Of a stretch of 64,000 nt of DNA, positions 9,510 to 33,734 are shown piece by piece. The notes under the pieces were generated by a model. It worked only from the letters and a program-made list of their open reading frames with translations. It ran no database searches and was not told the origin of the DNA. Made by a program: the position numbers and the translations under genes. The number at the start of each line of letters is the position of its first letter. Position 1 is the first letter of the stretch. This DNA is from Metallumcola ferriviriculae (lineage in GTDB: Bacteria; Bacillota; JADQBR01). The stretch covers positions 658,501-722,500 of the forward strand of contig NZ_CP121694.1 in assembly GCF_035573695.1 (NCBI RefSeq). Direction: 5' to 3'.

Positions 9510-11855
9510 ATGGGGAAGAAGTATCAATCTTCTTATAGAAAGAATTTAACATTTATGGATTTGCTGCTAATGAGTATTGTCATCTTTTCGCCCTTTTTTA
9601 GGGGCCTTTATTTTGAGGCGGAATTTTTATTCTTTCATCTGCTTACGGCAGCCACTTTCGTGTGGTTTGCCAAGCAAGCAGTTGACCGGAAGGCATTTAC
9701 TTTTTTTCGGGCAGCGCCTGATTTCTTCAGTGCGGGGCTGTTATTAGCTTATTTTATATCTTTCTTATTTGCTGTCAATCATCGTTTGGCAGTTATGGAA
9801 AGCATGAAGATGCTCACTTATTTCTTGGTATATTGGGTGGCTGCTTACGGGATAAATGACGGGATAAAGGTCAATAAGTATCTCCAAGCAATTTTTTGCA
9901 GCGGTACGATAGTTTCTTTGCTGGGTCTGGGCGCTGCCTTTGGTACTTTTAATCTGACCGCAGCAGTGATAGACGGCATCATTACTTCCACGCTGCAATA
10001 TAAAAATAGTTTTGGGATTTTTCTAGTAGTGATAAATTTGATTGGCCTATATTTTTTAATACGAGAAGAGAGCATGCTCAAAAGATACTTGTATGGCAGC
10101 GCTAATCTGCTAGTTTTTCTCGCGCTATTGGGAAGTCAGTCCCGAGGCGCATGGCTGATTTATCCTTTGGTTTTGCTGCTGGCTTTTGCGGGTATTGCCG
10201 GTGAGCACCGGCGTGTTTTTGTTCAGTCAGCTTTTATCCAATTCATTGCAGCTTTCGCGGTGGCTGCTCCAACATTTCGAGCTATAAGCAGTTCAGCAGC
10301 TGCGGGGTGGTTATGGGTATTAGCCGGGATAGTGTTGGTAATAGGACTCGAATTTGCTGCTGCTAAGCTTTTTGCTGGGCGCATGCTGACAGTACCGCGA
10401 ACAGCCGTAGTTATCTGCAGTGTTGCCGTGCTCATAGTAGTATTTTTCTTTATGGCCCGGCCCGAGGTAATTACCGTTACTGCTCAAAAAGTACTACCAA
10501 AGCAATTGGCCCAAAGGGTGCAAACCATAAATCTAAATGTGCACCAAGTACAGGAACGTTTTGCTTTTTATAAGGATGCTTTAAAAATTGTCAAAGAACA
10601 TCCGATCATAGGGATAGGCGGGCGCGGCTGGCGCACCGCTTATCAGGCATATCAAAGCTATTATTATGTTTCTAAAGAAATACACAGTTACTATTTTAAA
10701 GTATTAGTGGAAACCGGTTTTGTGGGTTTGACTATGCTTCTTGGCTGGTTATTTTCCGTAATCATTATAGGGTTTAAGAATACTTTCAAGACTAAGGGAG
10801 ACGAACGATCCCTAAATGCCATCTTAACCATTGCAATTATTACTATTGCTGCACATAGTATCATTGATTTTAACTTATCCTTGGGTGCCATTTCCATACT
10901 ACTTTGGTTTCTTGCCGGGTTATCTACAAGGTATAACCGGTTAAAACCGTCGAAACCTTCAAATGAAAAGGTTAAAGTACCCGAGGTGGTCCAATGGAGC
11001 GTCATAGGGCTGTTGGCTGCGCTGCTTATACTGATTCCCGGAAGTCTTGCGGTGGGCCGTCATTACGCGGGTGAAGCGGTAAGCGCTATGAGCAAGGGAA
11101 ATATCCAGGCCGCGGAGCGGTTGTTTGAAAAGGCGGCAGCATTTGACCCTTTAACAGCATCATATAAGGGGGACCTGGCCCAATTGGCCTATCAGCAGGG
11201 CCGTCTTGTCGTTCGGTCTGATAGAAAAAAAGCAGAGGAATACTTTCAATCTGCTTTGAAACTGGTGAACAGTGCGGTTAAGTTAGATCCGTATAATAGA
11301 GACATTCTTTATGTGAAGGCGGAGATATTATCGCCTACGGGGCAGGTGGACGAGGCTATTGCTGAAGTTAAAAAGGGGATTAGCTTAGGCCCTTATGTCA
11401 CTGACTCTTATACTAAACTAGCAAGGACTTATTTCATTGTAGCCCGCTACTCTATGGAGCGGGACCAGTATCCAAAAGCCTTAGAATACGCTAAGCAGTT
11501 GGTGGGTGTAGAAACATTGCTCAGGGACACAATGAATCAGGTGGAAGACAAGTATCTAAAGCTATGGGTAACTCAACCGCAGTTAAAGGTTACGCCGGAA
11601 TTGGCTTTATACTTGGGTCAGGCCTACGCCTTTCTTGGTAATTACCAGCGGGCTGCCGAAAATTTCGAAATCGCGGCAGCGGAGAAAAGCCTAAAAAATG
11701 AAGCCCTGCTTTGGTGGGGCGTGGCCCTTGAACAAGAGGGTAAAAAAGAAGCAGCTTCAGTTAAATTACGGCAGGTTTTTAAGCTGAACCCGGATCTAAA
11801 AGTTCAGCTGGGGGTAATACAAAATATGTTAAGAGAATTTGAGGAAGTGAGATAG
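9510..11855 (+). CDS. O-antigen ligase/polymerase-like membrane protein fused to TPR domain
   Basis: The 781-residue protein has about 12 hydrophobic segments in its first 480 residues. The long extracytoplasmic loop contains KEHPIIGIGGRGWR near residue 360 and the motif region before EIHSYYFKVLVETGFVGL, typical of the Wzy_C (WaaL/Wzy) family, which transfers or polymerises undecaprenyl-PP-linked glycans outside the membrane. From about residue 525 onward it is soluble, with TPR-like helices (GNIQAAERLFEKAAAFDP and YLGQAYAFLGNYQRAAENFE). In a bacterium without visible LPS genes a protein- or wall-glycan ligase role is plausible (inference). The next gene starts two bases after its stop. Confidence 0.82.
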   Translation: MGKKYQSSYRKNLTFMDLLLMSIVIFSPFFRGLYFEAEFLFFHLLTAATFVWFAKQAVDRKAFTFFRAAPDFFSAGLLLAYFISFLFAVNHRLAVMESMKMLTYFLVYWVAAYGINDGIKVNKYLQAIFCSGTIVSLLGLGAAFGTFNLTAAVIDGIITSTLQYKNSFGIFLVVINLIGLYFLIREESMLKRYLYGSANLLVFLALLGSQSRGAWLIYPLVLLLAFAGIAGEHRRVFVQSAFIQFIAAFAVAAPTFRAISSSAAAGWLWVLAGIVLVIGLEFAAAKLFAGRMLTVPRTAVVICSVAVLIVVFFFMARPEVITVTAQKVLPKQLAQRVQTINLNVHQVQERFAFYKDALKIVKEHPIIGIGGRGWRTAYQAYQSYYYVSKEIHSYYFKVLVETGFVGLTMLLGWLFSVIIIGFKNTFKTKGDERSLNAILTIAIITIAAHSIIDFNLSLGAISILLWFLAGLSTRYNRLKPSKPSNEKVKVPEVVQWSVIGLLAALLILIPGSLAVGRHYAGEAVSAMSKGNIQAAERLFEKAAAFDPLTASYKGDLAQLAYQQGRLVVRSDRKKAEEYFQSALKLVNSAVKLDPYNRDILYVKAEILSPTGQVDEAIAEVKKGISLGPYVTDSYTKLARTYFIVARYSMERDQYPKALEYAKQLVGVETLLRDTMNQVEDKYLKLWVTQPQLKVTPELALYLGQAYAFLGNYQRAAENFEIAAAEKSLKNEALLWWGVALEQEGKKEAASVKLRQVFKLNPDLKVQLGVIQNMLREFEEVR

Positions 11856-15967: not shown

Positions 15968-17257
15968 ATGAGTCATTTAAATACGGTAATTAGAGTTAGC
16001 CAATTATCAAAAGTCTATAAATTATATGATAACCCCACGGACAGGTTAAAAGAATCATTAAGTCCCTTACGTAGGATATACCACAAAGAGTTCTACGCAC
16101 TAAAGGACATTTCTTTTAGCGTAAATAAGGGTGAGACAGTTGGGATTATTGGAAGGAACGGTTCGGGCAAATCTACGTTGCTTAAAGCTATTACCAATGT
16201 GATGACACCCACTTCAGGGCAAGTAAACGTCAGTGGGAAGGTTTCTGCATTATTAGAATTGGGCGCCGGTTTTAATCCCGATTTTACCGGTATGGAGAAC
16301 ATCTATCTTAACGGATCTATCATGGGCTTTTCCAAGGAAGAGATGGATAGTAAATTAGAGCAAATATTATCCTTTGCTGATATCGGTGATTTTATCAATC
16401 AACCTGTAAAGACCTATTCTAGCGGGATGTTTGTAAGGTTGGCATTTGGCGTAGCAATAAATGTTGACCCTGAGATACTAATCGTAGATGAGGCATTGGC
16501 GGTTGGAGATATTAGATTTCAACAAAAATGTTTTAGAAAAATAGAAGAACTTCAACAAGACAAAACAGTCTTGTTTGTGTCCCACGACATAGCGGCAGTT
16601 AATAAGTTTTGTAATAGAGTAATTTGGTTAAATGACGGGATGATAGTAGAGGATGGCGAACCGGAAGAAGTTGCGAAAAGATATCAAGCTTTTATGATAA
16701 ATTCCCAGCTCAAGAAATATGAGAGCATGAGTGAAAGCAAGGAAGAAACACCAGTACGCGATGATAGTTATGAGCAGGATATTGAGCCAATTGACCCAAG
16801 TTTGGATGTGCTTGGGGATAGTAAGGCTAAGATTATAGGGATTTCTTTAATAGACGCACCAAGTAACGAGAAAGTTACGGTAGTTCAACCAGGACAAAAA
16901 CTGAAGCTGTTTATTAAAGTAAAATACAATTGTGTCTTGCGATCGCCCATAATAGGGGCCTCCTTAAAAGACAGGCTGGGTAATATAGTTACTCAATTTA
17001 ACAGTTATGTGTTAGATAACACCTTGGATAATGTTGATGAAAATGATTTAAAGGACTACTGCTTTGAATTTCTTATGCCTCCATTGAAAAGCGGCTTTTA
17101 TTCAATATCGCCAGCGGTCGCTTCCGGCAGTCAAAGTGACCATGTACAGCATTGTTGGATTCATGATGCGCTAATCGTAAGAATGGAAGATGGACAAACC
17201 TATGACCTTCCTGGTTATATGTTTTTAGATGGTTTAAAATTTAGGGCTATAGATTGA
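15968..17257 (+). CDS. Polysaccharide ABC exporter ATP-binding protein with carbohydrate-binding tail (Wzt type)
   Basis: The first 250 residues are an ATPase with Walker A GRNGSGKSTLLKA near residue 60, signature YSSGM, Walker B PEILIVDEALAVGD and the H-loop VSHD. After an acidic linker, residues about 280-429 form a beta-sandwich tail (VVQPGQKLKLFIKVKYN and later) of the Wzt C-terminal type. In E. coli O8/O9a this tail recognises the modified non-reducing end of the polymer and gates export (known). TagH-type ATPases lack such a tail. The adjacent methyltransferase-containing fusion protein is the obvious candidate for making the recognised cap (inference). Confidence 0.92.
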   Translation: MSHLNTVIRVSQLSKVYKLYDNPTDRLKESLSPLRRIYHKEFYALKDISFSVNKGETVGIIGRNGSGKSTLLKAITNVMTPTSGQVNVSGKVSALLELGAGFNPDFTGMENIYLNGSIMGFSKEEMDSKLEQILSFADIGDFINQPVKTYSSGMFVRLAFGVAINVDPEILIVDEALAVGDIRFQQKCFRKIEELQQDKTVLFVSHDIAAVNKFCNRVIWLNDGMIVEDGEPEEVAKRYQAFMINSQLKKYESMSESKEETPVRDDSYEQDIEPIDPSLDVLGDSKAKIIGISLIDAPSNEKVTVVQPGQKLKLFIKVKYNCVLRSPIIGASLKDRLGNIVTQFNSYVLDNTLDNVDENDLKDYCFEFLMPPLKSGFYSISPAVASGSQSDHVQHCWIHDALIVRMEDGQTYDLPGYMFLDGLKFRAID

Positions 17258-17267
17258 GGGGTTATAG

Positions 17268-20200
17268 ATGAAGTTTACCGGTGAGAGATTTGTTCCCAAC
17301 GCATCAACAGATACGCAGTTAGAGATAGAGCATTATCAAAGATATTATTCGGCTGCAGATTTGGTTAAGGATAAAGTAGTAATTGATGCTGCTTGTGGGG
17401 AAGGCTACGGTTCCGAGATACTTTCACAACATGCGAAATTTGTTTATGGCTATGACATAAGCGATGAAGCAATAAATTATGCAAAAAGCAAATATAAGGG
17501 TAATAATTTAAATTTCGCCACTGCTTCAATTGATGCTTTGCCAAATGACGATAACTCTGTTGATGTGTTTATTTCTTTTGAGACAATAGAACACGTCAAT
17601 GAAGAGACCCAAACAAAGTTTTTAAAAGAGGTCTCAAGAGTATTAAGAGATGACGGCATTTTTATTATTTCCACACCGGATAAACGCACCTATTCTGATG
17701 CGCCAAATTACAAAAATGAATATCATATAAAAGAATTTTATGAAAGTGAATTCGTAGATTTTTTATCTAGATGTTTTAGGCATGTAAATGTATTTTATCA
17801 AAGGTTTGAAGTTACTTCCATAATAGGTAATAGCAAGGGCAGCGAATTAAGTATTCAGAAATGGAATCAACGGCCAAAAGAGACTGGTAAGTATCTAATC
17901 GCCGTATGCAGCAATAAACCAGTAGCGTCTCTAATGATGAACTCTGTGGTAATGGATACTGAGAATAGATACGGTACTATTATGAATCGGGTTATTACCC
18001 TTCAGGATGAAGTGGAGGAGAGAAGCAGGCATCTTGGCACATTGAATGAGCTAATAAACTCCAAAGACCAACTGATTACTGATTTGCAGCAGCAATTACA
18101 AAGCAGAGTTAACTTAGAAAAAGGACAGTTGGCGGATACATTAGATAACTATTCCACTGAGCTTAAGCAAGTTATAGAAACAAACCTGGAGAATGGCAAT
18201 GAAATTTCAACATTAATTGAAAAAATGGATGAGGTTGTCTTAGCCAAAGATGAGCAAATCAGTGAAAAAAATACTATCTTAATTGAACTTACCGAAGGGC
18301 ATCAGAGATTACTTGATGAGCTTGGAAAAAATAAAAAGCGGCACTACCAGGAACTGCAGCAAAAAAAAATAGCTATCGAAGACTTAGAGCAACAGGTTGA
18401 ACAGCGCGATCTATCAGTTGAGAACTTGCAACGAGATATTGAAGTGTTGACTGCGGCACACGAGGAACTGATTAATAATCTTAAAGAAATTAAAAAACAG
18501 CAAGAAGAGAAGCTTCAGGAGAAGAACTCAGTTATCGATGAACTAAAGCAGCAGATTGAACAGCGTGCTGAATATGTTGAGACTTTGAAACAAGATGTTG
18601 ACAGTTTGAATGTCACTATTAACAATCAAGAAGGCCATATTAATAAACTACTGCAGGATGAACGTAAGCTGAATAACATACTGCAATCAGATGGTTGGAA
18701 GCTGCTGACAAAATATTATAGGTTAAGGGATTACGTCTTACCTAATAACAGTAAGAGAAAGTTAGCAGCTAAACTGTTAGTAAAGACGCTTAAGCATCCG
18801 ACACAAATGCTAAAAAGTATGAATAAAGAAAATCTGCAAAAGTTTAGATTTTATTTTAGAACAGAAAATGCTGGGTTGTTAGAAAATAGAGTAGATGATT
18901 ATCTTGAAAAACATTCAGAAGTAAAGCCGCAGCCAATAGACATTTACGATATCACCGATGCAAACGATAAACCCAAAATAGTTTTTCCTGTTAGCGAGCG
19001 GCCCGTTGTCTCCATTATTATTCCAGTCTACAATCAGTGGGATTACACGTATTCATGTTTAAAATCTATTAAAGAAAACACACAAGATGTTGATTATGAA
19101 GTAATTATCGCTGATGATGTTTCATCTGACGAGACAATCAACATCAAGGATTATATAGAAAACATTACCGTGGTACGGAACAAAACCAACAAAGGGTTTT
19201 TATTAAACTGTAATAACGCTGCGAAATACGCAAAAGGTAAATATACTCATTTACTTAACAACGATACAAATGTACAAAAAGGTTGGCTAGCATCACTAGT
19301 TGAATTAATTGAAAGCGATAATAAGGTTGGTTTAGTTGGTTCCAAATTAGTCTACGGCGATGGAAAACTTCAAGAAGCCGGGGGCATTATTTGGCGTGAC
19401 GGCAGTGGTTGGAACTATGGCCGCCTGGACGACCCCGAAAAGCCGGAGTATAACTACGTCAAAGAAGTTGACTATATTTCCGGGGCTAGTATTATGGTTA
19501 GGTCCGATCTGTGGAATGAAATTGGTGGGTTTGATGAAACTTATGTTCCTGCTTACTTTGAAGATGCAGACTTGGCCTTTGAGATAAGAAGAAAAGGATA
19601 TAAAGTGATGTACCAGCCAAAATCTGTTGTTGTGCATTTTGAAGGGCAGTCGCATGGTACGGATATTAATAGTGGGATTAAGAGTTATCAGGCTAAGAAT
19701 AAAGAAAAGTTTATTGAAAAGTGGAGAAGTGAATTAGAACGCAGTCATTCTAACAATGGGCAAAATGTATTTCAGGCAAGGGATAGAAGTTCTGATAAAA
19801 AAACTATTCTTTTTGTAGATCATTACGTACCACATTTTGATAAAGACGCTGGCGGCAAATGCACGTACCATTATCTAAAATTGTTTAAACAAATGGGATT
19901 TAACGTCGTTTTTATAGGTGATAACTTTTATAAACATGAGCCATACACCACTAAACTACAGCAAATGGGAGTACAAGTCTTATACGGGAATTGGTATGCT
20001 CAAAACATTGAAAAATGGATTAAACAAAACGGCAATAATATCGACTATGCGTATCTTAATAGGCCTCATATTTCTATTAAGTATATAGACAAAATAAGAA
20101 ATCATACTGATGCAAAAATTATATATTTCGGACATGACCTGCATTATTTGCGAGAACTAAGAAACCACGAATTTGACAAAAATGACGAATTATTAAAATC

Positions 20201-20900
20201 ATCTAAGAGATGGAAACAGATTGAATTTGAGCTGTTTAATAAGGCAGACGTGATATACGTAGTTGGAAATTACGAGCAAAAGGTATTGCAGAAAGAATTT
20301 CCGTCTAAAGAGATTCGAAACATTCCAGTGTACATTTATGATGACTTCAAAAGCATATCCCCTCGAAACTTCCAAGATACAAAAGACATACTATTCGTGG
20401 GCGGCTTTAATCATAAACCTAACGGGGATGCAGTTTTATGGTTTGTCCGCGAAGTATTGCCTGGAATTAAGATAAGGTTGCCAAACGTCAAATTCTACAT
20501 AGTGGGTTCAAAACCACCAGAAGACATTAAACAGTTGCAGTCCGAAGACATAATAGTCACTGGCTTTGTTTCAGATGAAGAACTGGATGAGCTGTATAAA
20601 AAATGTAGAGTAGTAGTAGTGCCTTTGAGGTTTGGGGCCGGAGTGAAAGGGAAGGTTGTGGAGGCCCTTTATTATCGTGTTCCAATTGTAACAACTTCTA
20701 TAGGTGCTGAGGGCTTACCATCGGTTGAGAATAACCTTGTAATTGCTGATAATGAACAGGATTTTGCAAGTAGTGTGGTAGATTTATATTTTAATGAGGA
20801 ATTATGGAGCAAATTGGCTGCAAATTCAGGTGAATACATTGCTGAGTACTTTTCAAAAGAGGCTGCTTATCACATTACTTCCAAAGATTTTTTGGGATAA
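17268..20900 (+). CDS. Multidomain methyltransferase / coiled-coil / GT2 / GT4 glycan assembly protein
   Basis: The protein has 1210 residues in one uninterrupted frame. Residues 1-215 are a class I SAM methyltransferase beginning MKFTGERFVP, with motif I VVIDAACGEGYGSEI near 37 and FISFETIEHV. Residues about 240-485 are heptad-rich coiled coil ending in LQSDGWKLLTKYYRLRDYVL. Residues about 577-830 are a GT2 domain (VSIIIPVYNQ, LLNNDTNVQKGW, and the acidic YFEDADLAFEIRRKGYK motif). Residues about 842-1210 are a GT-B GT4 domain (GVKGKVVEALYYRVPIVTTS). It sits ten bases after Wzt. The layout resembles the WbdD terminator plus WbdA polymerase of O9a in one chain; a role in polymer extension and methyl capping is inference. 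Confidence 0.88.
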   Translation: MKFTGERFVPNASTDTQLEIEHYQRYYSAADLVKDKVVIDAACGEGYGSEILSQHAKFVYGYDISDEAINYAKSKYKGNNLNFATASIDALPNDDNSVDVFISFETIEHVNEETQTKFLKEVSRVLRDDGIFIISTPDKRTYSDAPNYKNEYHIKEFYESEFVDFLSRCFRHVNVFYQRFEVTSIIGNSKGSELSIQKWNQRPKETGKYLIAVCSNKPVASLMMNSVVMDTENRYGTIMNRVITLQDEVEERSRHLGTLNELINSKDQLITDLQQQLQSRVNLEKGQLADTLDNYSTELKQVIETNLENGNEISTLIEKMDEVVLAKDEQISEKNTILIELTEGHQRLLDELGKNKKRHYQELQQKKIAIEDLEQQVEQRDLSVENLQRDIEVLTAAHEELINNLKEIKKQQEEKLQEKNSVIDELKQQIEQRAEYVETLKQDVDSLNVTINNQEGHINKLLQDERKLNNILQSDGWKLLTKYYRLRDYVLPNNSKRKLAAKLLVKTLKHPTQMLKSMNKENLQKFRFYFRTENAGLLENRVDDYLEKHSEVKPQPIDIYDITDANDKPKIVFPVSERPVVSIIIPVYNQWDYTYSCLKSIKENTQDVDYEVIIADDVSSDETINIKDYIENITVVRNKTNKGFLLNCNNAAKYAKGKYTHLLNNDTNVQKGWLASLVELIESDNKVGLVGSKLVYGDGKLQEAGGIIWRDGSGWNYGRLDDPEKPEYNYVKEVDYISGASIMVRSDLWNEIGGFDETYVPAYFEDADLAFEIRRKGYKVMYQPKSVVVHFEGQSHGTDINSGIKSYQAKNKEKFIEKWRSELERSHSNNGQNVFQARDRSSDKKTILFVDHYVPHFDKDAGGKCTYHYLKLFKQMGFNVVFIGDNFYKHEPYTTKLQQMGVQVLYGNWYAQNIEKWIKQNGNNIDYAYLNRPHISIKYIDKIRNHTDAKIIYFGHDLHYLRELRNHEFDKNDELLKSSKRWKQIEFELFNKADVIYVVGNYEQKVLQKEFPSKEIRNIPVYIYDDFKSISPRNFQDTKDILFVGGFNHKPNGDAVLWFVREVLPGIKIRLPNVKFYIVGSKPPEDIKQLQSEDIIVTGFVSDEELDELYKKCRVVVVPLRFGAGVKGKVVEALYYRVPIVTTSIGAEGLPSVENNLVIADNEQDFASSVVDLYFNEELWSKLAANSGEYIAEYFSKEAAYHITSKDFLG

Positions 20901-20948: not shown

Positions 20949-22928
20949 TTGATAGAACGAAGAAACATTGTCCAAAACAACAAAATTAGGTCTAGTAACG
21001 GTAAGGTGAAATTTATTTTAGCTAGTTTAGCCTTGTCAGTAATCGTGATTTATTTTTTTAGAGGTTTTCTAACTTACGGGATGGAATTCGACGAAGTGTT
21101 TAGAGCAAATAATTTATTGCCTTTCATAAACGAAAATGCGCATGAATGGAATCAAAGCATCTTTACCCTACCTTTGTTCAAACTACAAATACCATTAATG
21201 TACAAACAATATATTAGTTCTACTCCTTTGTTGAAGTATTTACCATTAATCTTCTTTGATAATTTTCTTATTGGAATCAGGTTTCTATATCTGATATATT
21301 TTTTAATTTCAATTACTGTTTTGTTTTATTTAGCTTCTAAATACAATTTTAATTTGGCATTAATTTTATCATTAATGATTATTACTTCTCCAATATTATA
21401 TCCCGAGATTACCTTTGGTTTTGTATCTACATTACATTTGTTATTTTTTTCAATAGCTGCTTTTCTAATGTATATCTACTTTAATAGGGATAGAAAGGCA
21501 CTGTATTTGTGGTGTGCGGTTTTTTTGTCCAGTTTTATGGTTAATCTGGAGTTTTACAGTTTGTGGATTTTGAGTTCTTTAGTTCTAACTAGTTTATTGT
21601 TTTTTTATCAAGAGTTTAAATCCTTGATGTCTGTCAAGAATGGAATTACAATAACTAGTGCCGTGTTTGTAGGCTTATTCAATTATATTATTTATAATGT
21701 CCTTACTGGTTTTGCGTCATTTAGGCCTTTATTTCTAAAGCTATTTATGCCAGATAAATACAATGCCAATCCAATAGACTATAAGAAGACTTTACCGTTG
21801 CAAAAAGAAGTGGCCTTAAAAATGGAACACGTTAGTAATTTTATGGGCAGTAGCTTTGATGTGTATTTGGTATTGTTTGGCTTGATAGTGATTCTGTATC
21901 TGATTGTTCTATATAAACTGGTATTATCGAAATCTGTGAAACAATATAAAATTTATTTTTTTCCAATAACAAATTTCTTGATAATATTTTTCTTTATACT
22001 AATAAGTCCGAATACTACCAGACCTGGCCATTATGCTTACCTATTACCTTTTTTTGAGCTTTCGTTACTTAGCTGTTTGGTTTTATTTTACAAAGTATAT
22101 AAAAATTCAAGTGGTCGCTTGGTAAAAATTCTTTGCTTGTTTTTACCTTTGGTTTTAATAAGTTCGAATTTCTTTGCGTCTAATAAAATTGTAACAAAAG
22201 CCAGTGAAGTTAACGGACTAGGTTATTTTAGTCCAGCTATTTTCCAGTTAAATAAGTATATAGTTTCAAACAATATAGATTTTAATCGAGTTGTACATTT
22301 GGAATGGGGTTTGTATTCTCAATTATATTTTTTAAATAAAGGGGAGGCTGATATACATTCTGTAGTGTTCCAATTAAAGAACGCAAGAAATGAGGGAGAG
22401 AGGGAAGAAGTGCTCAAAAAAGAATTAACATCTCCTTGGTTTTTGGATGTTAAAGAACTGTATTTTCCACTTTATTCCGATTTAGATAAGGAAGTAGCTA
22501 AAACTTTTTTCCCTTTAATGGAAAGTCTAGATGGAGAAATACAAAAAGTTAAAGAGTTCTATGAGACAAATGGTAAGGAGGTTTTTGCTTTATATAAGCT
22601 TGCTAATTATAGTGATGTAAGAAAGAGATTATTATCGACCTTTCAAAATGTTAAAATATCTCCGAGCCTTAAAATACTAAAATTTGGGGCAAACGTAAAA
22701 AACATAAACCCCTCCAAAGACTTTGCAATGTGGTTTATTACCTTGGGTCATACCAGAAATACATCTGTAATTCTTAATAATTTCCAATTGGAAACTGTAT
22801 ATTATGCTGACCACTTAACAGCTACAGTTCCAAAAGAATTATTAAGTAAGGGAATAACTTATGAACTATATCTTTATGATTCCGCTAAAGGTGTTAAGTC
22901 TAATCCGGTTGTTTTTGACTTGCAGTAA
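20949..22928 (+). CDS. Large membrane protein, possible GT-C glycosyltransferase
   Basis: This protein of 659 residues has about 11 hydrophobic segments in the first 430 residues and a soluble C-terminal part of about 220 residues. After the first helix, GMEFDEVFRANN carries the acidic pair in the first extracytoplasmic loop that is characteristic of GT-C enzymes using polyprenyl-phosphate sugars. No closer family is recognised. The start is TTG after GGGGGA. The gene is markedly AT-rich compared with the rml genes and opens a block of similar composition (to about 29.7 kb), which suggests horizontal acquisition. The polyprenyl-phosphate GT2 at 26680 could supply its donor (inference). Confidence 0.62.
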   Translation: MIERRNIVQNNKIRSSNGKVKFILASLALSVIVIYFFRGFLTYGMEFDEVFRANNLLPFINENAHEWNQSIFTLPLFKLQIPLMYKQYISSTPLLKYLPLIFFDNFLIGIRFLYLIYFLISITVLFYLASKYNFNLALILSLMIITSPILYPEITFGFVSTLHLLFFSIAAFLMYIYFNRDRKALYLWCAVFLSSFMVNLEFYSLWILSSLVLTSLLFFYQEFKSLMSVKNGITITSAVFVGLFNYIIYNVLTGFASFRPLFLKLFMPDKYNANPIDYKKTLPLQKEVALKMEHVSNFMGSSFDVYLVLFGLIVILYLIVLYKLVLSKSVKQYKIYFFPITNFLIIFFFILISPNTTRPGHYAYLLPFFELSLLSCLVLFYKVYKNSSGRLVKILCLFLPLVLISSNFFASNKIVTKASEVNGLGYFSPAIFQLNKYIVSNNIDFNRVVHLEWGLYSQLYFLNKGEADIHSVVFQLKNARNEGEREEVLKKELTSPWFLDVKELYFPLYSDLDKEVAKTFFPLMESLDGEIQKVKEFYETNGKEVFALYKLANYSDVRKRLLSTFQNVKISPSLKILKFGANVKNINPSKDFAMWFITLGHTRNTSVILNNFQLETVYYADHLTATVPKELLSKGITYELYLYDSAKGVKSNPVVFDLQ

Positions 22929-23003
22929 AGTTGTGCTTTATTCTTAGAAATTATTTTATATCTTAACCGATTAAGGTGTGAAGATATTCATTGAGGTGAT
23001 TTC

Positions 23004-23544
23004 ATAAGAGAGTTTTGTTTATTACTAGGAAATATCCTCCGCAAGTAGGAGGGATGGAACAGCATAGTTACCACATCACTACGGGAATAGATTGCGAAAA
23101 GAAAATCCTAGCTTTGGGAAAGAGTCAGATTCATTTACTATGGTTTATACCGTATAGTTTAATACATGTATTGTTAACCCGTAACAAGTGGGATGTTATT
23201 CATTTAGGGGATTTTGTACTAGCGTTGGTTGGTTTTCCAAACTAGTGTCTCCCAAAACAAAGGTTGTTGCACAACTCCATGGCTTAGATATTACATATAA
23301 AAATTGTACCAGAAAGATTATGCAAGACGTTGAGTTTTATTTTAATGGGAAAAAAGTAGATTATGTAGTGAATAACTCGGATGAATTGGAATATGACATG
23401 TTCATCGATAAACGATTGCTAAATAAAGGGGTTCACCAAGAATTAACAATTAAACAAATAATCTATGGAATCCGATTAACTATGGGTATTCTGATAATAA
23501 AGACCAAGTATTGGCTACTGATTGGGTTAGAATTGAAACGTTAG
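23004..23544 (+). pseudogene. Broken GT4-family glycosyltransferase gene
   Basis: A good ribosome site (GAGGTGAT, 22993-23000) precedes CAT-AAGAGAGTT, where deletion of one G has removed the expected ATG; in that frame follow RVLFITRKYPPQVGGMEQHS and DVIHLGDFVLALVG, the N-terminus of a GT4 glycosyltransferase. The frame stops at 23245, but the homology continues in another frame (WFSKLVSPKTKVVAQLHGLD) from about 23225. After GLDITYKN the sequence loses resemblance, and the C-terminal GT-B domain is missing. Start loss, frameshift and truncation together mark a pseudogene. Confidence 0.8.
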
Positions 23545-23613
23545 AGTAACGACTGCTAAAATGTTGAAAAGTTTGTCTATGCGAATTCAAATAGTGCGGT
23601 GGTGATTATACTA

Positions 23614-24762
23614 ATGGATAATGCAAAAAGGAAAATAGTAATTGTTGGGCCCGTTTATCCCTATAAAGGAGGTATTGCCCATTATACCAGTCTATTATAT
23701 AAAGCATTAAACAAAAAATATGATGTAAAATTAATATCATTTAAGTTTCAATATCCAACCTTTCTTTATCCTGGTCAAGAACAAAAGGATTATGCAAACG
23801 ATCAGTTTAAGGTTGAAAATACTTGCTTTTTGATAAATACGATTCATCCAGGGAGTTGGATAAGGACGGTATATCAAATAAAAAAGTATGGACCAGATGT
23901 TATAATACTTCAATGGTGGAATCCGTTTTTTGCGCCTTCTTATTTTGTTATATCTTTATTGTCAAGGATACTTACTAAAACAAAGATAATATTTACTTGT
24001 CATAATGTTTTGCCACACGATAGAATGCCGTTTGATAAACAGATGACTCGTTTAACGCTAGGCGTAGGACACCACTTTATTGTTCAGTCAGGGGATGATG
24101 AAAATAAGCTTCTGGCGTTACTGCCTAAAGCAAACTATAAGAGGGCTTTTCACCCAACATACAATGTTTTTAAAATTGAAGATTTGCCAAAGGTTCGGGC
24201 GAGAGAAATGTTAGGAATTGGTGCAAGAGAAAGAGTCCTACTTTTCTTCGGCTTTATTAGGGAGTACAAGGGTTTGCAATATTTAATAAGGGCCATGCCC
24301 CAAGTATTTCAATTTTATGAAGATATTAAGCTACTAATAGTTGGTGATTTTTATGATAATAAACAAAAATATGTTGAAGATGTACGTTCGCTTGGGCTAA
24401 CTAATAATGTCAAAATTTATGATGGGTATATACCAGACAAGGAGGTAGGCAAATTTTTCGCTGCGTCTGATATTGTAGTGCTACCATATATCTCAGCTAC
24501 ACAAAGTGGGATTGTGCAGATTGCGTACGGATTTGAGCGTCCTGTTATAGTTACGAACGTCGGAGGCTTACCTGATGTAGTGGCGGACAATAGGACTGGG
24601 TATGTGGTTGAACCACACAATTCTGCTCAACTCGCTGATGCAATAATTAAATATTTTGCTAAAAATAAGGAAAGAACATTAACAAAAAACATAAAAAATG
24701 ACCAGGAAAAATATTCGTGGGACCGAATGGTGGAAGTAGTTGAAGCACTACTTAATTGGTAA
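23614..24762 (+). CDS. GT4-family glycosyltransferase
   Basis: The product is a GT-B fold enzyme of 382 residues. The N-terminal domain begins KRKIVIVGPVYPYKGGIAHY, whose Gly-rich loop is typical of GT4. The C-terminal donor domain has LLFFGFIREYKGLQYLIRA and the SATQSGIVQIAYGFERPVIV segment, equivalent to the family EX7E region in which the first position is replaced (SG-IVQIA), so donor-phosphate contacts may be atypical. A GTG at 23599 is in frame, but GGTGGTGAT sits at good distance from ATG 23614. The sugar is unknown. Confidence 0.85.
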   Translation: MDNAKRKIVIVGPVYPYKGGIAHYTSLLYKALNKKYDVKLISFKFQYPTFLYPGQEQKDYANDQFKVENTCFLINTIHPGSWIRTVYQIKKYGPDVIILQWWNPFFAPSYFVISLLSRILTKTKIIFTCHNVLPHDRMPFDKQMTRLTLGVGHHFIVQSGDDENKLLALLPKANYKRAFHPTYNVFKIEDLPKVRAREMLGIGARERVLLFFGFIREYKGLQYLIRAMPQVFQFYEDIKLLIVGDFYDNKQKYVEDVRSLGLTNNVKIYDGYIPDKEVGKFFAASDIVVLPYISATQSGIVQIAYGFERPVIVTNVGGLPDVVADNRTGYVVEPHNSAQLADAIIKYFAKNKERTLTKNIKNDQEKYSWDRMVEVVEALLNW

Positions 24763-26650: not shown

Positions 26651-26679
26651 GTTTTTTCACAGCAACAGGGGGGATGGCG

Positions 26680-27717
26680 TTGAAGCTTATTATTCAAATA
26701 CCATGTTATAACGAAGAAAAGACGTTACCAATTACATTGAAAGATTTGCCTAGGGAAATCTTTGGGGTAGATACAATTGAATATTTGATAATAAATGATG
26801 GTAGCAACGACAGAACCATAGAAGTCGCGAAAAAGTTGGGAGTACATCATATAGTAAGTTTCCCTAATAATAGGGGATTAGCGAAGGGCTTTATGGCGGG
26901 AATTGATGCATGCTTAAGGCTAGATGCAGATATTATTGTTAATACAGATGGTGATAACCAGTATAAGGGTCAGGATATACCTAAATTAGTAAAGCCCATC
27001 TTAGATGGAAGGGCTGAAGTTGTGGTGGGAGATAGACAGACTGATACTATAGAGCATTTTTCACCGCTTAAGAAAAAACTGCAGAAGCTTGGCAGTTGGG
27101 TTGTGAGATTAGCATCAGATACCAATGTCAATGATACTACCAGCGGATTCAGGGCTTATGCTAGAGAAGCTGCCATGAAACTAAACGTGATTTCAGAGTA
27201 TAGTTACACATTGGAAACCATTATTGATACGGGCAGAAGGAAAATTGCCATAGAAAATGTTCCTATAGGCACCAATGAACAGCTAAGAGAGTCAAGACTG
27301 TTTAAAAGCATTAGGGGATACATCCAAAGGTCAGCAACAACAATAATTAGGATTTATACTATGTACAGGCCTATGAAAGTTTTTTTGACTTTGGGTTCCA
27401 TTGTCTTCCTGTTAGGATTGTTAGTGGGCTTTCGGTACATGTATTTCTTCTTTAGTGGGCAAGGCGATGGGCATGTACAATCCCTGATATTAACTTCAAT
27501 TTTTTTGAGTTCAGGTGTACAAATTATTATGTTCGGTTTACTGGCTGATGCGATATCCGCAAACAGGAAAGTAAACGATGAGATTTTATATAGGATAAAA
27601 AGAATCGAGTATGATAAGGTCGACAAAATAAAGGGTTACGAGAACTCAAACGTGAAAGTTGATATTGATTATTTATTGGAAACTGCAGTAACAATCGAAG
27701 AAAATGAAAAAGCATAG
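26680..27717 (+). CDS. GT2 polyprenyl-phosphate glycosyltransferase (DPM1/GtrB-like)
   Basis: The 345-residue protein has a cytoplasmic GT2 domain (IIQIPCYNEEKTLPITL at the N-terminus, NDGSNDRT, and the VNTDGDNQYKGQDIP metal-binding DxD region) followed by two C-terminal membrane helices (about residues 233-255 and 268-290). This layout is that of dolichyl/undecaprenyl-phosphate sugar synthases, which make the donor for GT-C enzymes. TTG 26680 is chosen because GGGGGG sits six bases upstream; ATG 26674 touches that site. Together with the GT-C-like protein (20949) it could form an extracytoplasmic glycosylation pair (inference). Confidence 0.85.
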   Translation: MKLIIQIPCYNEEKTLPITLKDLPREIFGVDTIEYLIINDGSNDRTIEVAKKLGVHHIVSFPNNRGLAKGFMAGIDACLRLDADIIVNTDGDNQYKGQDIPKLVKPILDGRAEVVVGDRQTDTIEHFSPLKKKLQKLGSWVVRLASDTNVNDTTSGFRAYAREAAMKLNVISEYSYTLETIIDTGRRKIAIENVPIGTNEQLRESRLFKSIRGYIQRSATTIIRIYTMYRPMKVFLTLGSIVFLLGLLVGFRYMYFFFSGQGDGHVQSLILTSIFLSSGVQIIMFGLLADAISANRKVNDEILYRIKRIEYDKVDKIKGYENSNVKVDIDYLLETAVTIEENEKA

Positions 27718-29678: not shown

Positions 29679-31058
29679 ATGAAAGTAATTATTTTGGCTG
29701 GTGGAAGTGGTACTAGGTTGTGGCCACTAAGCCGGGATCGCTATCCTAAGCAATTTATCAAATTGCAAGGAAAGGAAGAATCTTTGTTTCAGGAAACATT
29801 TATTAGAAGTCTATTATTAGCGGATATCGATGATATATTTGTTGTTACAAATGAGAAATATAAGTTCTTAGTGATGGGTGAAGTTGAAGAACTAGGTTAT
29901 GATTACAAAGAGAATAATATTCTAGTTGAACCTGAGGCAAAGAATACTTTACCTGCCATTTACGCAGGTGTTCATGAGATCACAAAAAAAGGACATGATT
30001 CAGTATTAGTTTTTCCTTCAGATCATAAGATTGCTGAAGGCAGCCGCTTTGCTGGACTAAGTTGGGCTTCAGAAGAGCTAACAAAAGACTATTTGATTAC
30101 CTTTGGCATTAAACCGGACGGCCCAAATACCGGTTATGGATACATCTCGCCTGGGGAAGCTAAAGGCAATGGTTACGTTGTTAAGGAATTTAAAGAAAAA
30201 CCTAATTATGATACAGCAGTGGAGTACATAAAAAAGGGTTACTATTGGAACAGTGGAATCTTTCTTTTTGACTCAAAGTTATTTACTGAAGAGGTTAAAA
30301 TATATGCATCTGAAGTATTTGACGCCTTTGAATCAAGCTCGGATCTCGAGGGTGCTTTTTCAAAAATTCAGACAAAAATTTCCATAGACTGCGGCATTAT
30401 GGAAAAAAGTTCAAGAGTGGCTGTGGTGCCTGCAGAGATTGGTTGGAATGATTTGGGTAGTTTTGATTCTTTGTATGAAGTGCTTGAGAAAAATTCATCC
30501 AACAATATTACGAACCAAAATAATATATTACTTGATACAACAAATACATTTGTACATTCGCAAGTTGGGAAATTGGTGGCAACTGTTAATGTTGACGATT
30601 TAATTATAATTGATAACCGCGATGCCTTATTAATCTGCAAAAAAGGCGAGTCTCAAAAAGTTAAAGAGATTGTAGATATTCTAAAAGAACAACAAGATTC
30701 AAGAACGGAATACCACGTGCAAGACTATCGCCCCTGGGGTCATTACAAGGTGCTAGAGGAAGAAAAGGACTCGTTTAAAATTAAAAGGATTACGGTTAAT
30801 CAAGGGAAAAGGGTAAGCTACCAGCTTCATCATCATAGAAGTGAGCACTGGATCGTTGTTAAAGGAATGGCCAAAGTAACTATAGATGACGATGTGAAAT
30901 TTGTTCGCCCTGGCGAGAGTATATTTGTGAAAGCGGGCCAAAAGCACCGACTTGAGAACCCTGGGAAATTCCCTCTTAAAATTATTGAAGTGCAAATGGG
31001 TGATTACTTGGAAGAAGACGATATTATAAGGTTTGATGATGATTATGGTAGAGAATGA
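29679..31058 (+). CDS. manC: Mannose-1-phosphate guanylyltransferase / mannose-6-phosphate isomerase (type II, ManC)
   Basis: The bifunctional enzyme provides GDP-mannose. The 459-residue protein has the pyrophosphorylase domain (VIILAGGSGTRLWPLSRDRY then PKQFIKL; FPSDHKI; FKEKPN) and, from about residue 345, a C-terminal cupin of type II phosphomannose isomerase (RPWGHYKVLEE, QLHHHRSEHWIVVKG, with the metal-binding His and Glu). The length fits. No phosphomannomutase or GDP-sugar-converting gene lies in the window, so GDP-mannose is probably used directly. GGGGGG precedes the ATG. Confidence 0.93.
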   Translation: MKVIILAGGSGTRLWPLSRDRYPKQFIKLQGKEESLFQETFIRSLLLADIDDIFVVTNEKYKFLVMGEVEELGYDYKENNILVEPEAKNTLPAIYAGVHEITKKGHDSVLVFPSDHKIAEGSRFAGLSWASEELTKDYLITFGIKPDGPNTGYGYISPGEAKGNGYVVKEFKEKPNYDTAVEYIKKGYYWNSGIFLFDSKLFTEEVKIYASEVFDAFESSSDLEGAFSKIQTKISIDCGIMEKSSRVAVVPAEIGWNDLGSFDSLYEVLEKNSSNNITNQNNILLDTTNTFVHSQVGKLVATVNVDDLIIIDNRDALLICKKGESQKVKEIVDILKEQQDSRTEYHVQDYRPWGHYKVLEEEKDSFKIKRITVNQGKRVSYQLHHHRSEHWIVVKGMAKVTIDDDVKFVRPGESIFVKAGQKHRLENPGKFPLKIIEVQMGDYLEEDDIIRFDDDYGRE

Positions 31059-31217
31059 AACCGGATTTAAGAGAAAAATCGTGTTTGTGGCAAGTAAAAT
31101 TTGATAACACAGGAGTATGTTTTCGAAAAATAGGGAATAAGTAGAACCTTAAAAATTAAAGAATATGACAAATGAAATTACTATTACTTTCATTGGTAAA
31201 AAAATGGAGTGGTTAAA

Positions 31218-32477
31218 ATGTCAAAAGTATCTGGTTCAGTCATCAAGGATATTAATCTAGCACCTGAAGGCAAACTAAAGCTAGACTGGGTAAAGGCACA
31301 TATGCCTTTGCTAAATACCATTGAAGAACAGTTTAAAATGGAACAACCTTTTACAGGTTCTAAGGTCTCTATCTGTTTGCATCTTGAAGCCAAAACAGGA
31401 TATTTGGCCCAAGTAATCCAAGCGGGCGGTGCTGAAGTAGCGGTTTGCGGTAGTAATCCGCTATCCACTCAAGATGATGTTGTCGCCGCGCTGGTTGAAA
31501 GTGGGATAACGGCATATGCTTGGTATAATGTTACTGATGAAGAATATCATGAGCATATTAATAAGGTCCTAGATTTTAAACCTGATGCTATCATTGATGA
31601 CGGTGGAGATCTAGTAGGTACTTTACATAGCGAACGTATCGAACAGGCGAAGGAAATACTTGGCGGCTGTGAGGAGACAACGACAGGCATCGTAAGACTT
31701 AAAGCTTTAGACAACGAAGGTAAGCTTTTATTCCCCATGATGGCCGTGAATGATGCTTACTGTAAATATCTGTTCGACAATCGGTATGGTACAGGCCAAT
31801 CGGTTTGGGACGGCATTATGCGTACTACAAATCTTGTTATTGCTGGGAAAACCGTTGTGGTTGTAGGATATGGTTGGTGTGGGAAAGGTGTAGCAATGCG
31901 CGCGAAAGGTTTAGGTGCCAAAATCGTTGTCACAGAAGTTGATCCAATTAAGGCAACAGAGGCTTTTATGGATGGGTTTGAAGTGGTGCCTATGTTGGAA
32001 GCGGCTAAAAGAGGGGACATATTTGTTACGGTTACCGGTAATTGTGATGTTATCGCGGACGAGCACTTTGAAGTAATGAAAGATAGAGCAGTAATGTGCA
32101 ACGCGGGGCACTTTGATATAGAAGTGAATAAGAACGATTTGGCTAATAGAGCTGAAAGTGTCAGAGAGGTTCGTAAAAACATTGAGGAATTTCAAATGAA
32201 AGATGGACGGAAGTTGTATTTACTAGCCGGTGGGAGATTAGTCAATCTTGCTGCAGGGGATGGCCATCCGGTGGAAGTAATGGATATGACTTTTGCACTT
32301 CAGGCACTGGCTTTAAAGCATATTGTGGAGCATGGTAAAAAGATGGAGCCTCAAGTACATACGGTGCCGGCAGATATTGATAATTACGTTGCCAAATTGC
32401 GGCTTGATACATGGGGAGTAGATATTGATAAGCTTACAAATAAGCAAATAGAATATTTAGCTAGTTGGGGAGAATAA
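31218..32477 (+). CDS. ahcY: S-adenosylhomocysteine hydrolase
   Basis: This enzyme splits SAH to adenosine and homocysteine with bound NAD and so removes the product inhibitor of methyltransferases. The 419-residue protein has SICLHLEAKTGYLAQVIQAG near residue 50, DDGGDLVGTLH, the NAD-binding VVVGYGWCGKGVAMRAKGLG near residue 210 and NAGHFDIEV. It belongs to the short prokaryotic form without the roughly 40-residue insertion. An upstream GTG (31209) is in frame; GGAG before ATG 31218 decides. It sits between manC and metK in a glycan locus, an unusual place that suggests service to the local methyltransferases (inference). Confidence 0.93.
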   Translation: MSKVSGSVIKDINLAPEGKLKLDWVKAHMPLLNTIEEQFKMEQPFTGSKVSICLHLEAKTGYLAQVIQAGGAEVAVCGSNPLSTQDDVVAALVESGITAYAWYNVTDEEYHEHINKVLDFKPDAIIDDGGDLVGTLHSERIEQAKEILGGCEETTTGIVRLKALDNEGKLLFPMMAVNDAYCKYLFDNRYGTGQSVWDGIMRTTNLVIAGKTVVVVGYGWCGKGVAMRAKGLGAKIVVTEVDPIKATEAFMDGFEVVPMLEAAKRGDIFVTVTGNCDVIADEHFEVMKDRAVMCNAGHFDIEVNKNDLANRAESVREVRKNIEEFQMKDGRKLYLLAGGRLVNLAAGDGHPVEVMDMTFALQALALKHIVEHGKKMEPQVHTVPADIDNYVAKLRLDTWGVDIDKLTNKQIEYLASWGE

Positions 32478-32507
32478 ACATATTTTTAAGTGGAGAGGTG
32501 AAGGAAG

Positions 32508-33734
32508 ATGGGAAATAGAAGATTATTTACATCGGAATCAGTGACTGAGGGGCACCCTGATAAAATCGCGGACCAGATTTCAGATTCTGTTTTAGATGCT
32601 ATTTATCAAAAGGACCCTATGGCAAGAGTTGCGTGTGAGACTGCCATTACTACCGGGATGGTACTGGTAGCGGGAGAAATTACTACGAGTTGTTATGTAG
32701 ATATTCCTAAAGTGGTTAGGCAAACCATTCAAGATATTGGCTATACGAGGGCAAAATACGGATTTGATAGTGAAACTTGTGCCGTATTGACTTCCATCGA
32801 TGAACAATCGTCAGATATTGCTATGGGTGTAGATAAGGCTTTGGAAGCAAAAGAAGGCAGCATGAATGATGGGGAAATAGAGGCTATTGGCGCGGGTGAC
32901 CAGGGGATGATGTTTGGGTATGCGACTAATGAAACGCCGGAAATGATGCCTATGCCTATTTTCTTGGCACATAAGTTAACTAAGAGGTTGGCCGAAGTTC
33001 GTAAGCAGGGGACGCTCCCCTACTTAAGACCTGACGGAAAGTCTCAGGTTACTGTTGAATATGAAGATAATAAACCTATTAGAGTTGATACTGTTGTTAT
33101 ATCTACTCAGCATAGTGCTGATATTTCCATGGATGTCTTAAAAAAAGATATAATTGAGCAGGTCATCAAACCAGTGATACCAGCGGAGTTTATGGATGAA
33201 AATATAAGATACTTAGTTAACCCAACCGGGCGGTTTGTTATTGGGGGGCCTCAGGGCGATGCCGGGCTTACCGGACGAAAAATCATTGTAGACACATACG
33301 GTGGTATGGCCTGTCATGGTGGCGGTGCATTTAGCGGTAAGGACCCCACTAAGGTTGACCGGTCTGCGGCTTATGCGGCCCGGTATGTGGCTAAAAACAT
33401 CGTTGCAGCAAAGTTGGCTGAACGTTGTGAGGTGCAATTGGCCTATGCAATTGGAGTAGCTGAACCAGTATCCATCATGGTTGATACTTACGGAACAGGC
33501 ACAATAAGTGAGGAAATTTTAGTCAAAATGGTACGTAAGTATTTTGACCTTCGCCCAGCAGGTATCATTAAAATGCTTGATCTTCGCCGCCCCATATTTA
33601 AGCAAGTTGCGGCGTACGGTCATTTTGGGCGTGATGATTTAGATTTAACTTGGGAACGAACTGATAAAGTTGAAGATTTACAACGAGAAGCAGAACGGTT
33701 ATCTGCGGAGAGCCAAGTAGCTGCAACTAAATAA
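32508..33734 (+). CDS. metK: S-adenosylmethionine synthetase MetK
   Basis: MetK makes SAM from methionine and ATP. The 408-residue protein has the hallmark [18 protein letters not shown] near residue 127, the phosphate-binding [19 protein letters not shown], and [20 protein letters not shown] at the N-terminus. It is 31 bases after the SAH hydrolase stop with a GGTGAAGGAAG site, so the two form one unit. No S-box riboswitch is visible upstream of the pair. A second metK may exist elsewhere; this cannot be seen here. Confidence 0.95.

What the first reader, a model, noticed from the sequence alone, without database searches (positions are those of the whole stretch)
17268..20900. Methyltransferase, coiled coil, GT2 and GT4 in one protein beside Wzt: a possible single-chain polymerase and methyl terminator
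Seen: four modules in one uninterrupted 1210-residue frame, ten bases after a Wzt with carbohydrate-binding tail. Known: in E. coli O8/O9a, WbdD (methyltransferase/kinase plus coiled coil) caps the chain and its coil sets chain length, WbdA extends, and the Wzt tail binds the cap before export. Inferred: here extension, ruler and cap are fused, with no separate polymerase needed. A kinase domain was not seen, so the cap would be methyl only.
Basis: partly seen in the sequence, partly recalled or inferred. Interest (0 to 1): 0.75.

Follow-up and report, generated by a model that had tools for sequence, protein, structure and literature searches.

The report
Fused sugar-chain builder with methyl cap
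One large bacterial enzyme very probably both builds a surface sugar chain and ends it with a methyl cap that the neighbouring exporter recognises; this design is already known from a few bacteria, but the comparison made here gives unusually clear natural evidence that cap-making and export switch together.

Summary
In detail: window 17268-20900 (+) is one 1210-residue frame with a SAM methyltransferase, a ~240-residue coiled coil, a GT2 and a GT4 module, ten bases after a Wzt with a carbohydrate-binding tail. The reading is largely right but not new. G. stearothermophilus WsaE (methyltransferase plus two rhamnosyltransferase domains, caps its own polymer), K. pneumoniae O7 ORF6 and O12 WbbB are published fused polymerase-terminators. 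'No separate polymerase needed' is unproven: WsaE and ORF6-O7 each need a partner transferase.

New support: 24 loci with this methyltransferase-GT2-GT4 set all have a Wzt tail of the window's type. Relatives that keep GT2 and GT4 but carry another head (kinase-like, sulfotransferase, pyruvyltransferase, GT) have other tails or none; three proteins with this methyltransferase but other polymerase modules keep a related tail. In one close pair cap head and exporter were replaced together while GT4 stayed 98% identical. The methyl pocket known from the Aquifex exporter (Ala348/Trp362) is present in the window and in E. coli O8 (methyl cap), but is Gly/Arg in E. coli O9 (methyl-phosphate cap) and kinase-type loci. 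A methyl-only cap, read by the Wzt tail, is the best explanation. No biochemistry was done.

The parts
17268..20900 (+). 1210-aa fused protein: methyltransferase - coiled coil - GT2 - GT4
   Evidence: full-length relatives at 48-61% identity of the best segment
17268..17912 (+). class I SAM methyltransferase head (residues 1-215), predicted cap-forming module
   Evidence: PF08241 4.9e-21; SAM motif DAACGEGYGS with D40 G44 E45 G46 G48 invariant in the window and six relatives; Foldseek class I MTs; similar to E. coli O8 WbdD (3e-10) more than O9 WbdD (6e-4)
17952..18692 (+). coiled coil (residues 229-475), predicted ruler
   Evidence: heptad periodicity, 0 of 2000 shuffles; AF2 helices 234-309 and 314-472
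18948..19847 (+). GT2 module (residues 561-860), predicted rhamnosyltransferase
   Evidence: PF00535; AF2 and Foldseek GT-A fold; rml genes in the cluster
19908..20897 (+). GT4 module (residues 881-1210), predicted to use a GDP-manno-type donor
   Evidence: PF13692; GT-B fold hits MshA, PimA, 7qsg; subfamily follows ManC versus heptose genes
15968..17257 (+). Wzt, ABC exporter ATPase with C-terminal cap-binding tail
   Evidence: PF00005 and PF14524
16733..17254 (+). Wzt tail (residues 256-429), carbohydrate-binding domain of the methyl type (Asn/Ser/Ala/Trp pocket)
   Evidence: profile matches Aquifex Wzt CBD 8dky/6o14, 3e-10; pocket residues
15088..15951 (+). Wzm, exporter permease
   Evidence: PF01061
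11858..15140 (+). rmlD, rmlB, rmlA and an rmlC-like gene: dTDP-rhamnose supply
   Evidence: Pfam and NCBIfam; the rmlC-like protein (160 aa) is below the TIGR01221 cut-off
29679..31058 (+). ManC, GDP-mannose pyrophosphorylase/isomerase
   Evidence: PF01050 and PF00483; ManC lies in 17 of the relatives' loci
9510..11855 (+). O-antigen-ligase-like membrane protein with TPR tail, predicted glycan ligase
   Evidence: PF04932 1.6e-14
31209..33734 (+). S-adenosylhomocysteine hydrolase and S-adenosylmethionine synthetase, inside the cluster
   Evidence: Pfam

Best explanation
The protein is a fused polymerase-terminator of the ABC-transporter-dependent (Wzm/Wzt) pathway, of the WsaE type. The C-terminal GT2 and GT4 modules extend a lipid-linked chain, probably of rhamnose and a manno-type sugar (mannose, from the ManC gene). 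The coiled coil holds the methyltransferase head away from the growing end until the chain is long enough. The head then puts a methyl group, without phosphate, on the terminal sugar, which stops growth. The tail of the neighbouring Wzt binds that methyl cap and licenses export by Wzm/Wzt. Shown by sequence: the modules, their integrity, the absence of a kinase, the methyl-type pocket of the tail, and the co-switching of cap module and exporter. Inferred: catalysis, ruler function, sugars, and the methylated position.
For: Module finding and models. Invariant SAM motif in relatives. Published precedents with the same order: WsaE caps its own chain, with wzm-wzt-wsaE closely linked; ORF6-O7 and WbbB. 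In 24 of 24 loci with this methyltransferase-GT2-GT4 set the Wzt tail is of the window's type (122-185 bits in the others). Heads swapped for a kinase-like module (L089, L095, L102) go with a different tail: tail identity 24% against 45% within the methyl group, at equal GT2 identity (73 and 72%). Three proteins with this methyltransferase and other polymerase modules keep a related tail (38-70 bits). L089 and L093: WaaL 99%, GT4 98%, ManC 95% identical, but head unrelated, Wzm 57%, Wzt NBD 62%, tail 25%. On the polymerase tree the kinase head needs 3 separate changes. Methyl pocket of Aquifex Wzt (Thr346/Ala348/Trp362, plus Asn313): Ala348 27/27, Trp362 24/27 in methyltransferase-type tails; Gly 16/16 and Arg 15/16 in kinase-type tails. 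E. coli O8 (methyl) has Ala/Trp, E. coli O9 (methyl-phosphate) Gly/Arg, as expected.
Against: No enzyme assay or glycan structure. On the Wzt tree the cap types need only 4 changes, so the counts are not independent. L049 and L113 have a relative of this methyltransferase with a tail-less Wzt. Three of 27 methyltransferase-type tails lack Trp362 (Y, L, L), and His350, which contacts the cap in Aquifex, is Ala here. The coil segment is modelled only at pLDDT of about 45-85. [quoted passage not shown]
Confidence: 0.82

Rival explanations
1. The methyltransferase decorates internal repeat sugars, or is dispensable, and the Wzt tail recognises the repeat rather than the cap.
For: Many surface glycans carry internal O-methyl groups (general knowledge); a second methyltransferase, SAM synthetase and SAH hydrolase lie in the cluster, which could mean bulk methylation.
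Against: The tail type changes when the head changes while GT4 stays 98% identical, and stays related when the head stays with another polymerase. The tail has the methyl-cap pocket of Aquifex and E. coli O8.
Confidence: 0.1
2. Polymerisation needs a further transferase, as WsaE needs WsaF and ORF6-O7 needs ORF7; the fused protein makes only part of the repeat. (Compatible with the best explanation; it rejects only 'no separate polymerase needed'.)
For: Both closest experimental relatives need a partner. Three other transferases lie downstream: 23599-24762, 26674-27717, 33814-34719.
Against: In the close pair L089/L093 the core recognised around the fused gene is Wzm, Wzt, ManC, WaaL and RmlA, with no further GT2 or GT4 hit in the fetched stretch. 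Two GT modules suffice for a two-sugar repeat, as in WbbB. No WsaF_C domain was found in the genome, but the control also found none, so this is weak.
Confidence: 0.35
3. The cap is methyl-phosphate as in E. coli O9, with the kinase supplied by another gene.
For: In kinase-type loci the methyltransferase and the kinase-like protein can be separate genes.
Against: No kinase-like module in the head and no room for one. The tail has Ala/Trp instead of the Gly/Arg of O9 and kinase-type tails. The methyltransferase is closer to O8 WbdD than to O9 WbdD.
Confidence: 0.05

Closest known systems
WsaE, Geobacillus stearothermophilus NRS 2004/3a (PMC2943079, PMC3898925)
   Same: N-terminal methyltransferase plus two rhamnosyltransferase domains in one chain; gene closely follows wzm-wzt; rml genes; Gram-positive; methylates the terminal sugar.
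   Different: WsaE sequence not held here, so homology was not scored; WsaE works with WsaF; a coil is not discussed in the passages read; its cap is 2-O-methyl-rhamnose, unknown here.
ORF6 of Klebsiella pneumoniae O7 (PMC11231755)
   Same: Methyltransferase - coiled coil - two C-terminal GT modules, encoded with Wzm/Wzt.
   Different: Has an added kinase domain and a CBM-like domain (methyl-phosphate cap); both GTs are GT2; needs a ribofuranosyltransferase.
WbbB of Klebsiella O12 (PMC11231755)
   Same: Single-chain polymerase with two GTs near the C-terminus, coil as ruler, N-terminal terminator; Wzt tail reads the cap.
   Different: Terminator is a Kdo transferase, not a methyltransferase.
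WbdD of E. coli O8
   Same: Methyl-only terminator; partner Wzt tail has Ala348/Trp362 like the window.
   Different: Polymerase WbdA is a separate protein; sequence similarity of the methyltransferase is weak (3e-10 in a two-sequence search).
Wzt of Aquifex aeolicus (PMC9445017; 6o14, 8dky, 8dl0)
   Same: Best solved match to the Wzt tail; methyl pocket residues shared.
   Different: His350 is Ala in the window; trap loop two residues longer in the profile alignment; the ligand there is 3-O-methyl-D-mannose.

Membership tests
Fused polymerase-terminator of the Wzm/Wzt pathway (WsaE / ORF6-O7 / WbbB kind) | Terminator module, coiled coil and at least two GT modules in one chain, in that order | tested here: met
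Fused polymerase-terminator of the Wzm/Wzt pathway (WsaE / ORF6-O7 / WbbB kind) | Encoded with Wzm and a Wzt that carries a cap-binding tail | tested here: met
   24 of 24 loci with this set
Fused polymerase-terminator of the Wzm/Wzt pathway (WsaE / ORF6-O7 / WbbB kind) | Catalyses polymerisation and capping | not testable with these tools
   needs enzymology
WsaE orthologue | Sequence homology to WsaE over its full length | not tested
   the WsaE sequence was in none of the collections reached
WsaE orthologue | Works with a WsaF beta-1,2-rhamnosyltransferase | tested here: inconclusive
   no WsaF_C domain in the genome, but the control genomes gave none either
WbdD methyltransferase-kinase terminators (O9/O3, O7) | Kinase domain beside the methyltransferase | tested here: not met
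   methyltransferase ends near 215, coil starts near 230; tail lacks the Gly/Arg of this class
Methyl-cap-reading Wzt tail (Aquifex, E. coli O8) | Pocket residues Asn313, Thr/Ser346, Ala348, Trp362 | tested here: met
   window has N, S, A, W
Methyl-cap-reading Wzt tail (Aquifex, E. coli O8) | His350 contacts the C2 hydroxyl of the cap sugar | tested here: not met
   Ala in all 27 methyltransferase-type tails; would fit a cap methylated at O2, as in WsaE, but that is inference

The most novel reading that the evidence does not exclude
The window belongs to a wide modular system in which the GT2-GT4 polymerase stays and the cap-forming head is exchanged as one block with Wzm-Wzt. The residues at the positions of Aquifex Wzt 348 and 362 report the cap chemistry: Ala/Trp for methyl, Gly/Arg for phosphate or sulfate. 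The sulfotransferase-, pyruvyltransferase- and GT-headed forms would be terminators that were not found described in the papers read.
Probability: 0.5. Interest if true: 0.62.

Novelty: new member of a known kind. Interest (0 to 1): 0.42.

Why it matters
Chain length and export of many bacterial surface glycans rest on an end cap that the exporter reads. Here the rule can be read from sequence: cap enzyme and exporter tail switch together, independently of the polymerase, and two pocket residues separate methyl from methyl-phosphate systems. That makes cap chemistry predictable for uncharacterised clusters and gives ready-made natural swap pairs for testing how the exporter recognises a finished chain.

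Tried and rejected
Chance-frame artefact: rejected, full-length relatives occur in several families of Bacillota. WsaF-like GT4: not supported (no WsaF domain in Pfam or by genome search; the control was silent, so weak). Order and class searches around the window genome were nearly empty (3 genomes each). A profile of the kinase-like head found nothing in the PDB and Pfam does not name it: the kinase call rests on the motifs N-x-DLTF-x-N and VIDYEW and on the linked methyltransferase gene. Plasmid hits show the full architecture in Pseudodesulfovibrio, but without a Wzt in the stretch read, so they do not test the tail rule.

Full report
What is there. Window 17268-20900 (+) is a single open frame of 1210 residues. 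Pfam finds a class I SAM methyltransferase (residues 40-134), a GT2 (582-716) and a GT4 (1039-1174), each far above its cut-off. Residues 229-475 have the hydrophobic period of a coiled coil (0 of 2000 shuffles as strong, no proline). AlphaFold2 gives a methyltransferase fold up to about residue 215, then helices 234-309 and 314-472, and a model of the second half whose Foldseek matches are retaining GT4 enzymes such as MshA and PimA together with GT-A enzymes. The head matches class I methyltransferases. The gene starts ten bases after a Wzt whose tail is a Wzt_C domain.

Surroundings. Upstream lie Wzm, rmlD/B/A, an rmlC-like gene, an O-antigen-ligase-like protein with TPRs, a GMP-type pyrophosphorylase and a WecA-like transferase. 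Downstream are an unnamed 659-residue membrane protein, a GT4, a methyltransferase, a GT2, UDP-glucose dehydrogenase, ManC, S-adenosylhomocysteine hydrolase, S-adenosylmethionine synthetase, a GT2, a WbaP-like transferase and an SLH-domain protein. G+C falls from about 50% to 32% across the cluster. The layout resembles S-layer glycosylation clusters.

Is the methyltransferase intact, and is a kinase missing? In the window and six relatives aligned over the head the SAM motif (D40, A41, A42, G44, E45, G46, Y47, G48), D63 and the SFET-EH motif are invariant. Only about 15 residues lie between the methyltransferase and the coil, so the hidden kinase found in K. pneumoniae O7 ORF6 (223 residues) cannot be there. 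The head is more similar to the methyl-only WbdD of E. coli O8 (3e-10) than to the O9 enzyme (6e-4).

What does the Wzt tail read? Its profile matches the cap-binding domain of Aquifex aeolicus Wzt (3e-10) and, less well, E. coli O9a Wzt (4e-4). The Aquifex domain binds 3-O-methyl-mannose and not mannose, with the methyl group in a pocket of Leu300, Thr346, Ala348 and Trp362 (PMC9445017). The window has Ser, Ser, Ala and Trp there and keeps Asn313.

Does the tail follow the cap or the polymerase? In 24 of 24 loci with this methyltransferase-GT2-GT4 set (one with the frame split, one cut by its contig end), the Wzt carries the window's tail type. Where GT2 and GT4 are kept but the head is different, the tail is different or absent: a kinase-like head in L089, L095 and L102, a GT head in L101, a sulfotransferase head in L042, and tail-less Wzt in L008, L009 and L041. 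Three proteins with this methyltransferase but other polymerase modules (L114-L116) have a related tail. Median tail identity is 45% within the methyl group and 24% between methyl and kinase groups, with no overlap (33-90 against 18-30), although GT2 identity is the same (72 and 73%).

The clearest case is L089 against L093, two genomes of one genus. WaaL is 99%, GT4 98% and ManC 95% identical, but the head is unrelated, Wzm is 57%, the Wzt ATPase 62% and the tail 25% identical. Cap head and exporter were exchanged as a block under the same polymerase. On the polymerase tree the kinase head needs three separate changes, all forced by well-supported branches. The caution is that on the tree of the Wzt ATPase the cap types need only four changes: the exporter moves with the cap, and the counts below are not independent.

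A test on systems of known chemistry. Kinase-type loci also include 13 free-standing kinase-coil proteins; in the loci inspected a SAM methyltransferase gene lies just upstream of the kinase gene, so a methyl-phosphate cap is likely. Kinase-type tails have Gly at position 348 (16/16) and Arg at 362 (15/16), where the methyltransferase type has Ala (27/27) and Trp (24/27). The two sulfotransferase loci, which are near-copies, also have Gly and Arg. The rule, made from Firmicutes and Aquifex (with the O9a structure already in view), predicts Ala/Trp for E. coli O8 (methyl cap) and Gly/Arg for O9 (methyl-phosphate cap). The O8 Wzt of strain IAI1 indeed has Ala and Trp; the O9 Wzt of strain HS has Gly and Arg. 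Only O8 was a blind test. Tails of other classes (L101, L047, L019) align poorly at these positions and are not counted.

Which sugars? Loci of this family carry either ManC or the GDP-manno-heptose genes. The GT4 module divides accordingly (404-510 bits against the window in ManC loci, 258-404 in heptose loci), while GT2 hardly differs among the fused Paenibacillales proteins. On the polymerase tree the donor label changes once, and the window lies in the ManC clade. With the rml genes this suggests a rhamnose-mannose chain: GT2 for rhamnose, GT4 for the manno sugar. This is inference.

Coil length. The stretch between methyltransferase and GT2 varies from 214 to 450 residues and is 345 in the window. 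If the coil is a ruler, as shown for other systems (PMC11231755), the window's chains should be longer than those of the Paenibacillus relatives. This was not tested.

Comparison with the known. WsaE of G. stearothermophilus has the same plan and is known to methylate the end of its own chain; wzm, wzt and wsaE are closely linked there. ORF6-O7 has methyltransferase-kinase, coil and two GTs, and WbbB joins polymerase, coil and Kdo terminator in one chain. The finding is thus a new member of a known kind. WsaE itself could not be aligned because no collection reached held its sequence.

Noticed in passing
window 22990-23545: Remains of a GT4 gene: two overlapping short frames (23015-23245, 23188-23544) whose start reads ITRKYPPQVGGMEQHSYHI, apparently frame-shifted. 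Judged by eye only.
   Followed up: partly
window 31209-33734: S-adenosylhomocysteine hydrolase and S-adenosylmethionine synthetase genes sit inside the glycan cluster, as if to feed methylation locally.
   Followed up: no
window 6751-7800 and 34661-36094: Two different initiating transferases (WecA-like and WbaP-like) flank the cluster, so two glycans or a choice of first sugar are possible.
   Followed up: no
window 20949-22928: 659-residue membrane protein directly after the fused gene, with no family above a curated cut-off in Pfam or NCBIfam; no relative of it was seen beside the homologous loci.
   Followed up: partly
L041 8610-12578 (-): Relative with a polysaccharide pyruvyltransferase head (PF04230, 2.6e-27) in place of the methyltransferase, beside a tail-less Wzt: a possible pyruvyl terminator.
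   Followed up: partly
L008 6624-10466, L010 83-3418, L042 9160-12684: Relatives with a sulfotransferase-like head (weak Pfam Sulfotransfer_3) before GT2 and GT4: a possible sulfate terminator.
   Followed up: partly
L103-L109: Headless GT2-GT4 proteins of about 700-720 residues, six of seven beside GDP-manno-heptose genes, without Wzm/Wzt in the stretch read, so the polymerase half also exists alone.
   Followed up: partly
L181 5453-9082 (Pseudodesulfovibrio profundus plasmid): The full methyltransferase-to-GT4 protein (39.5% identity over residues 4-1208) on a plasmid of a Gram-negative sulfate reducer, beside a GHMP kinase.
   Followed up: partly
L005 7983-11212: In Romboutsia the protein is split into two frames (methyltransferase-coil and GT2-GT4); gene split or frameshift not decided.
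   Followed up: no
L049, L113: Methyltransferase of this family followed by an extra domain and a short coil, with a Wzt that has no tail: an exception to the pairing rule.
   Followed up: partly
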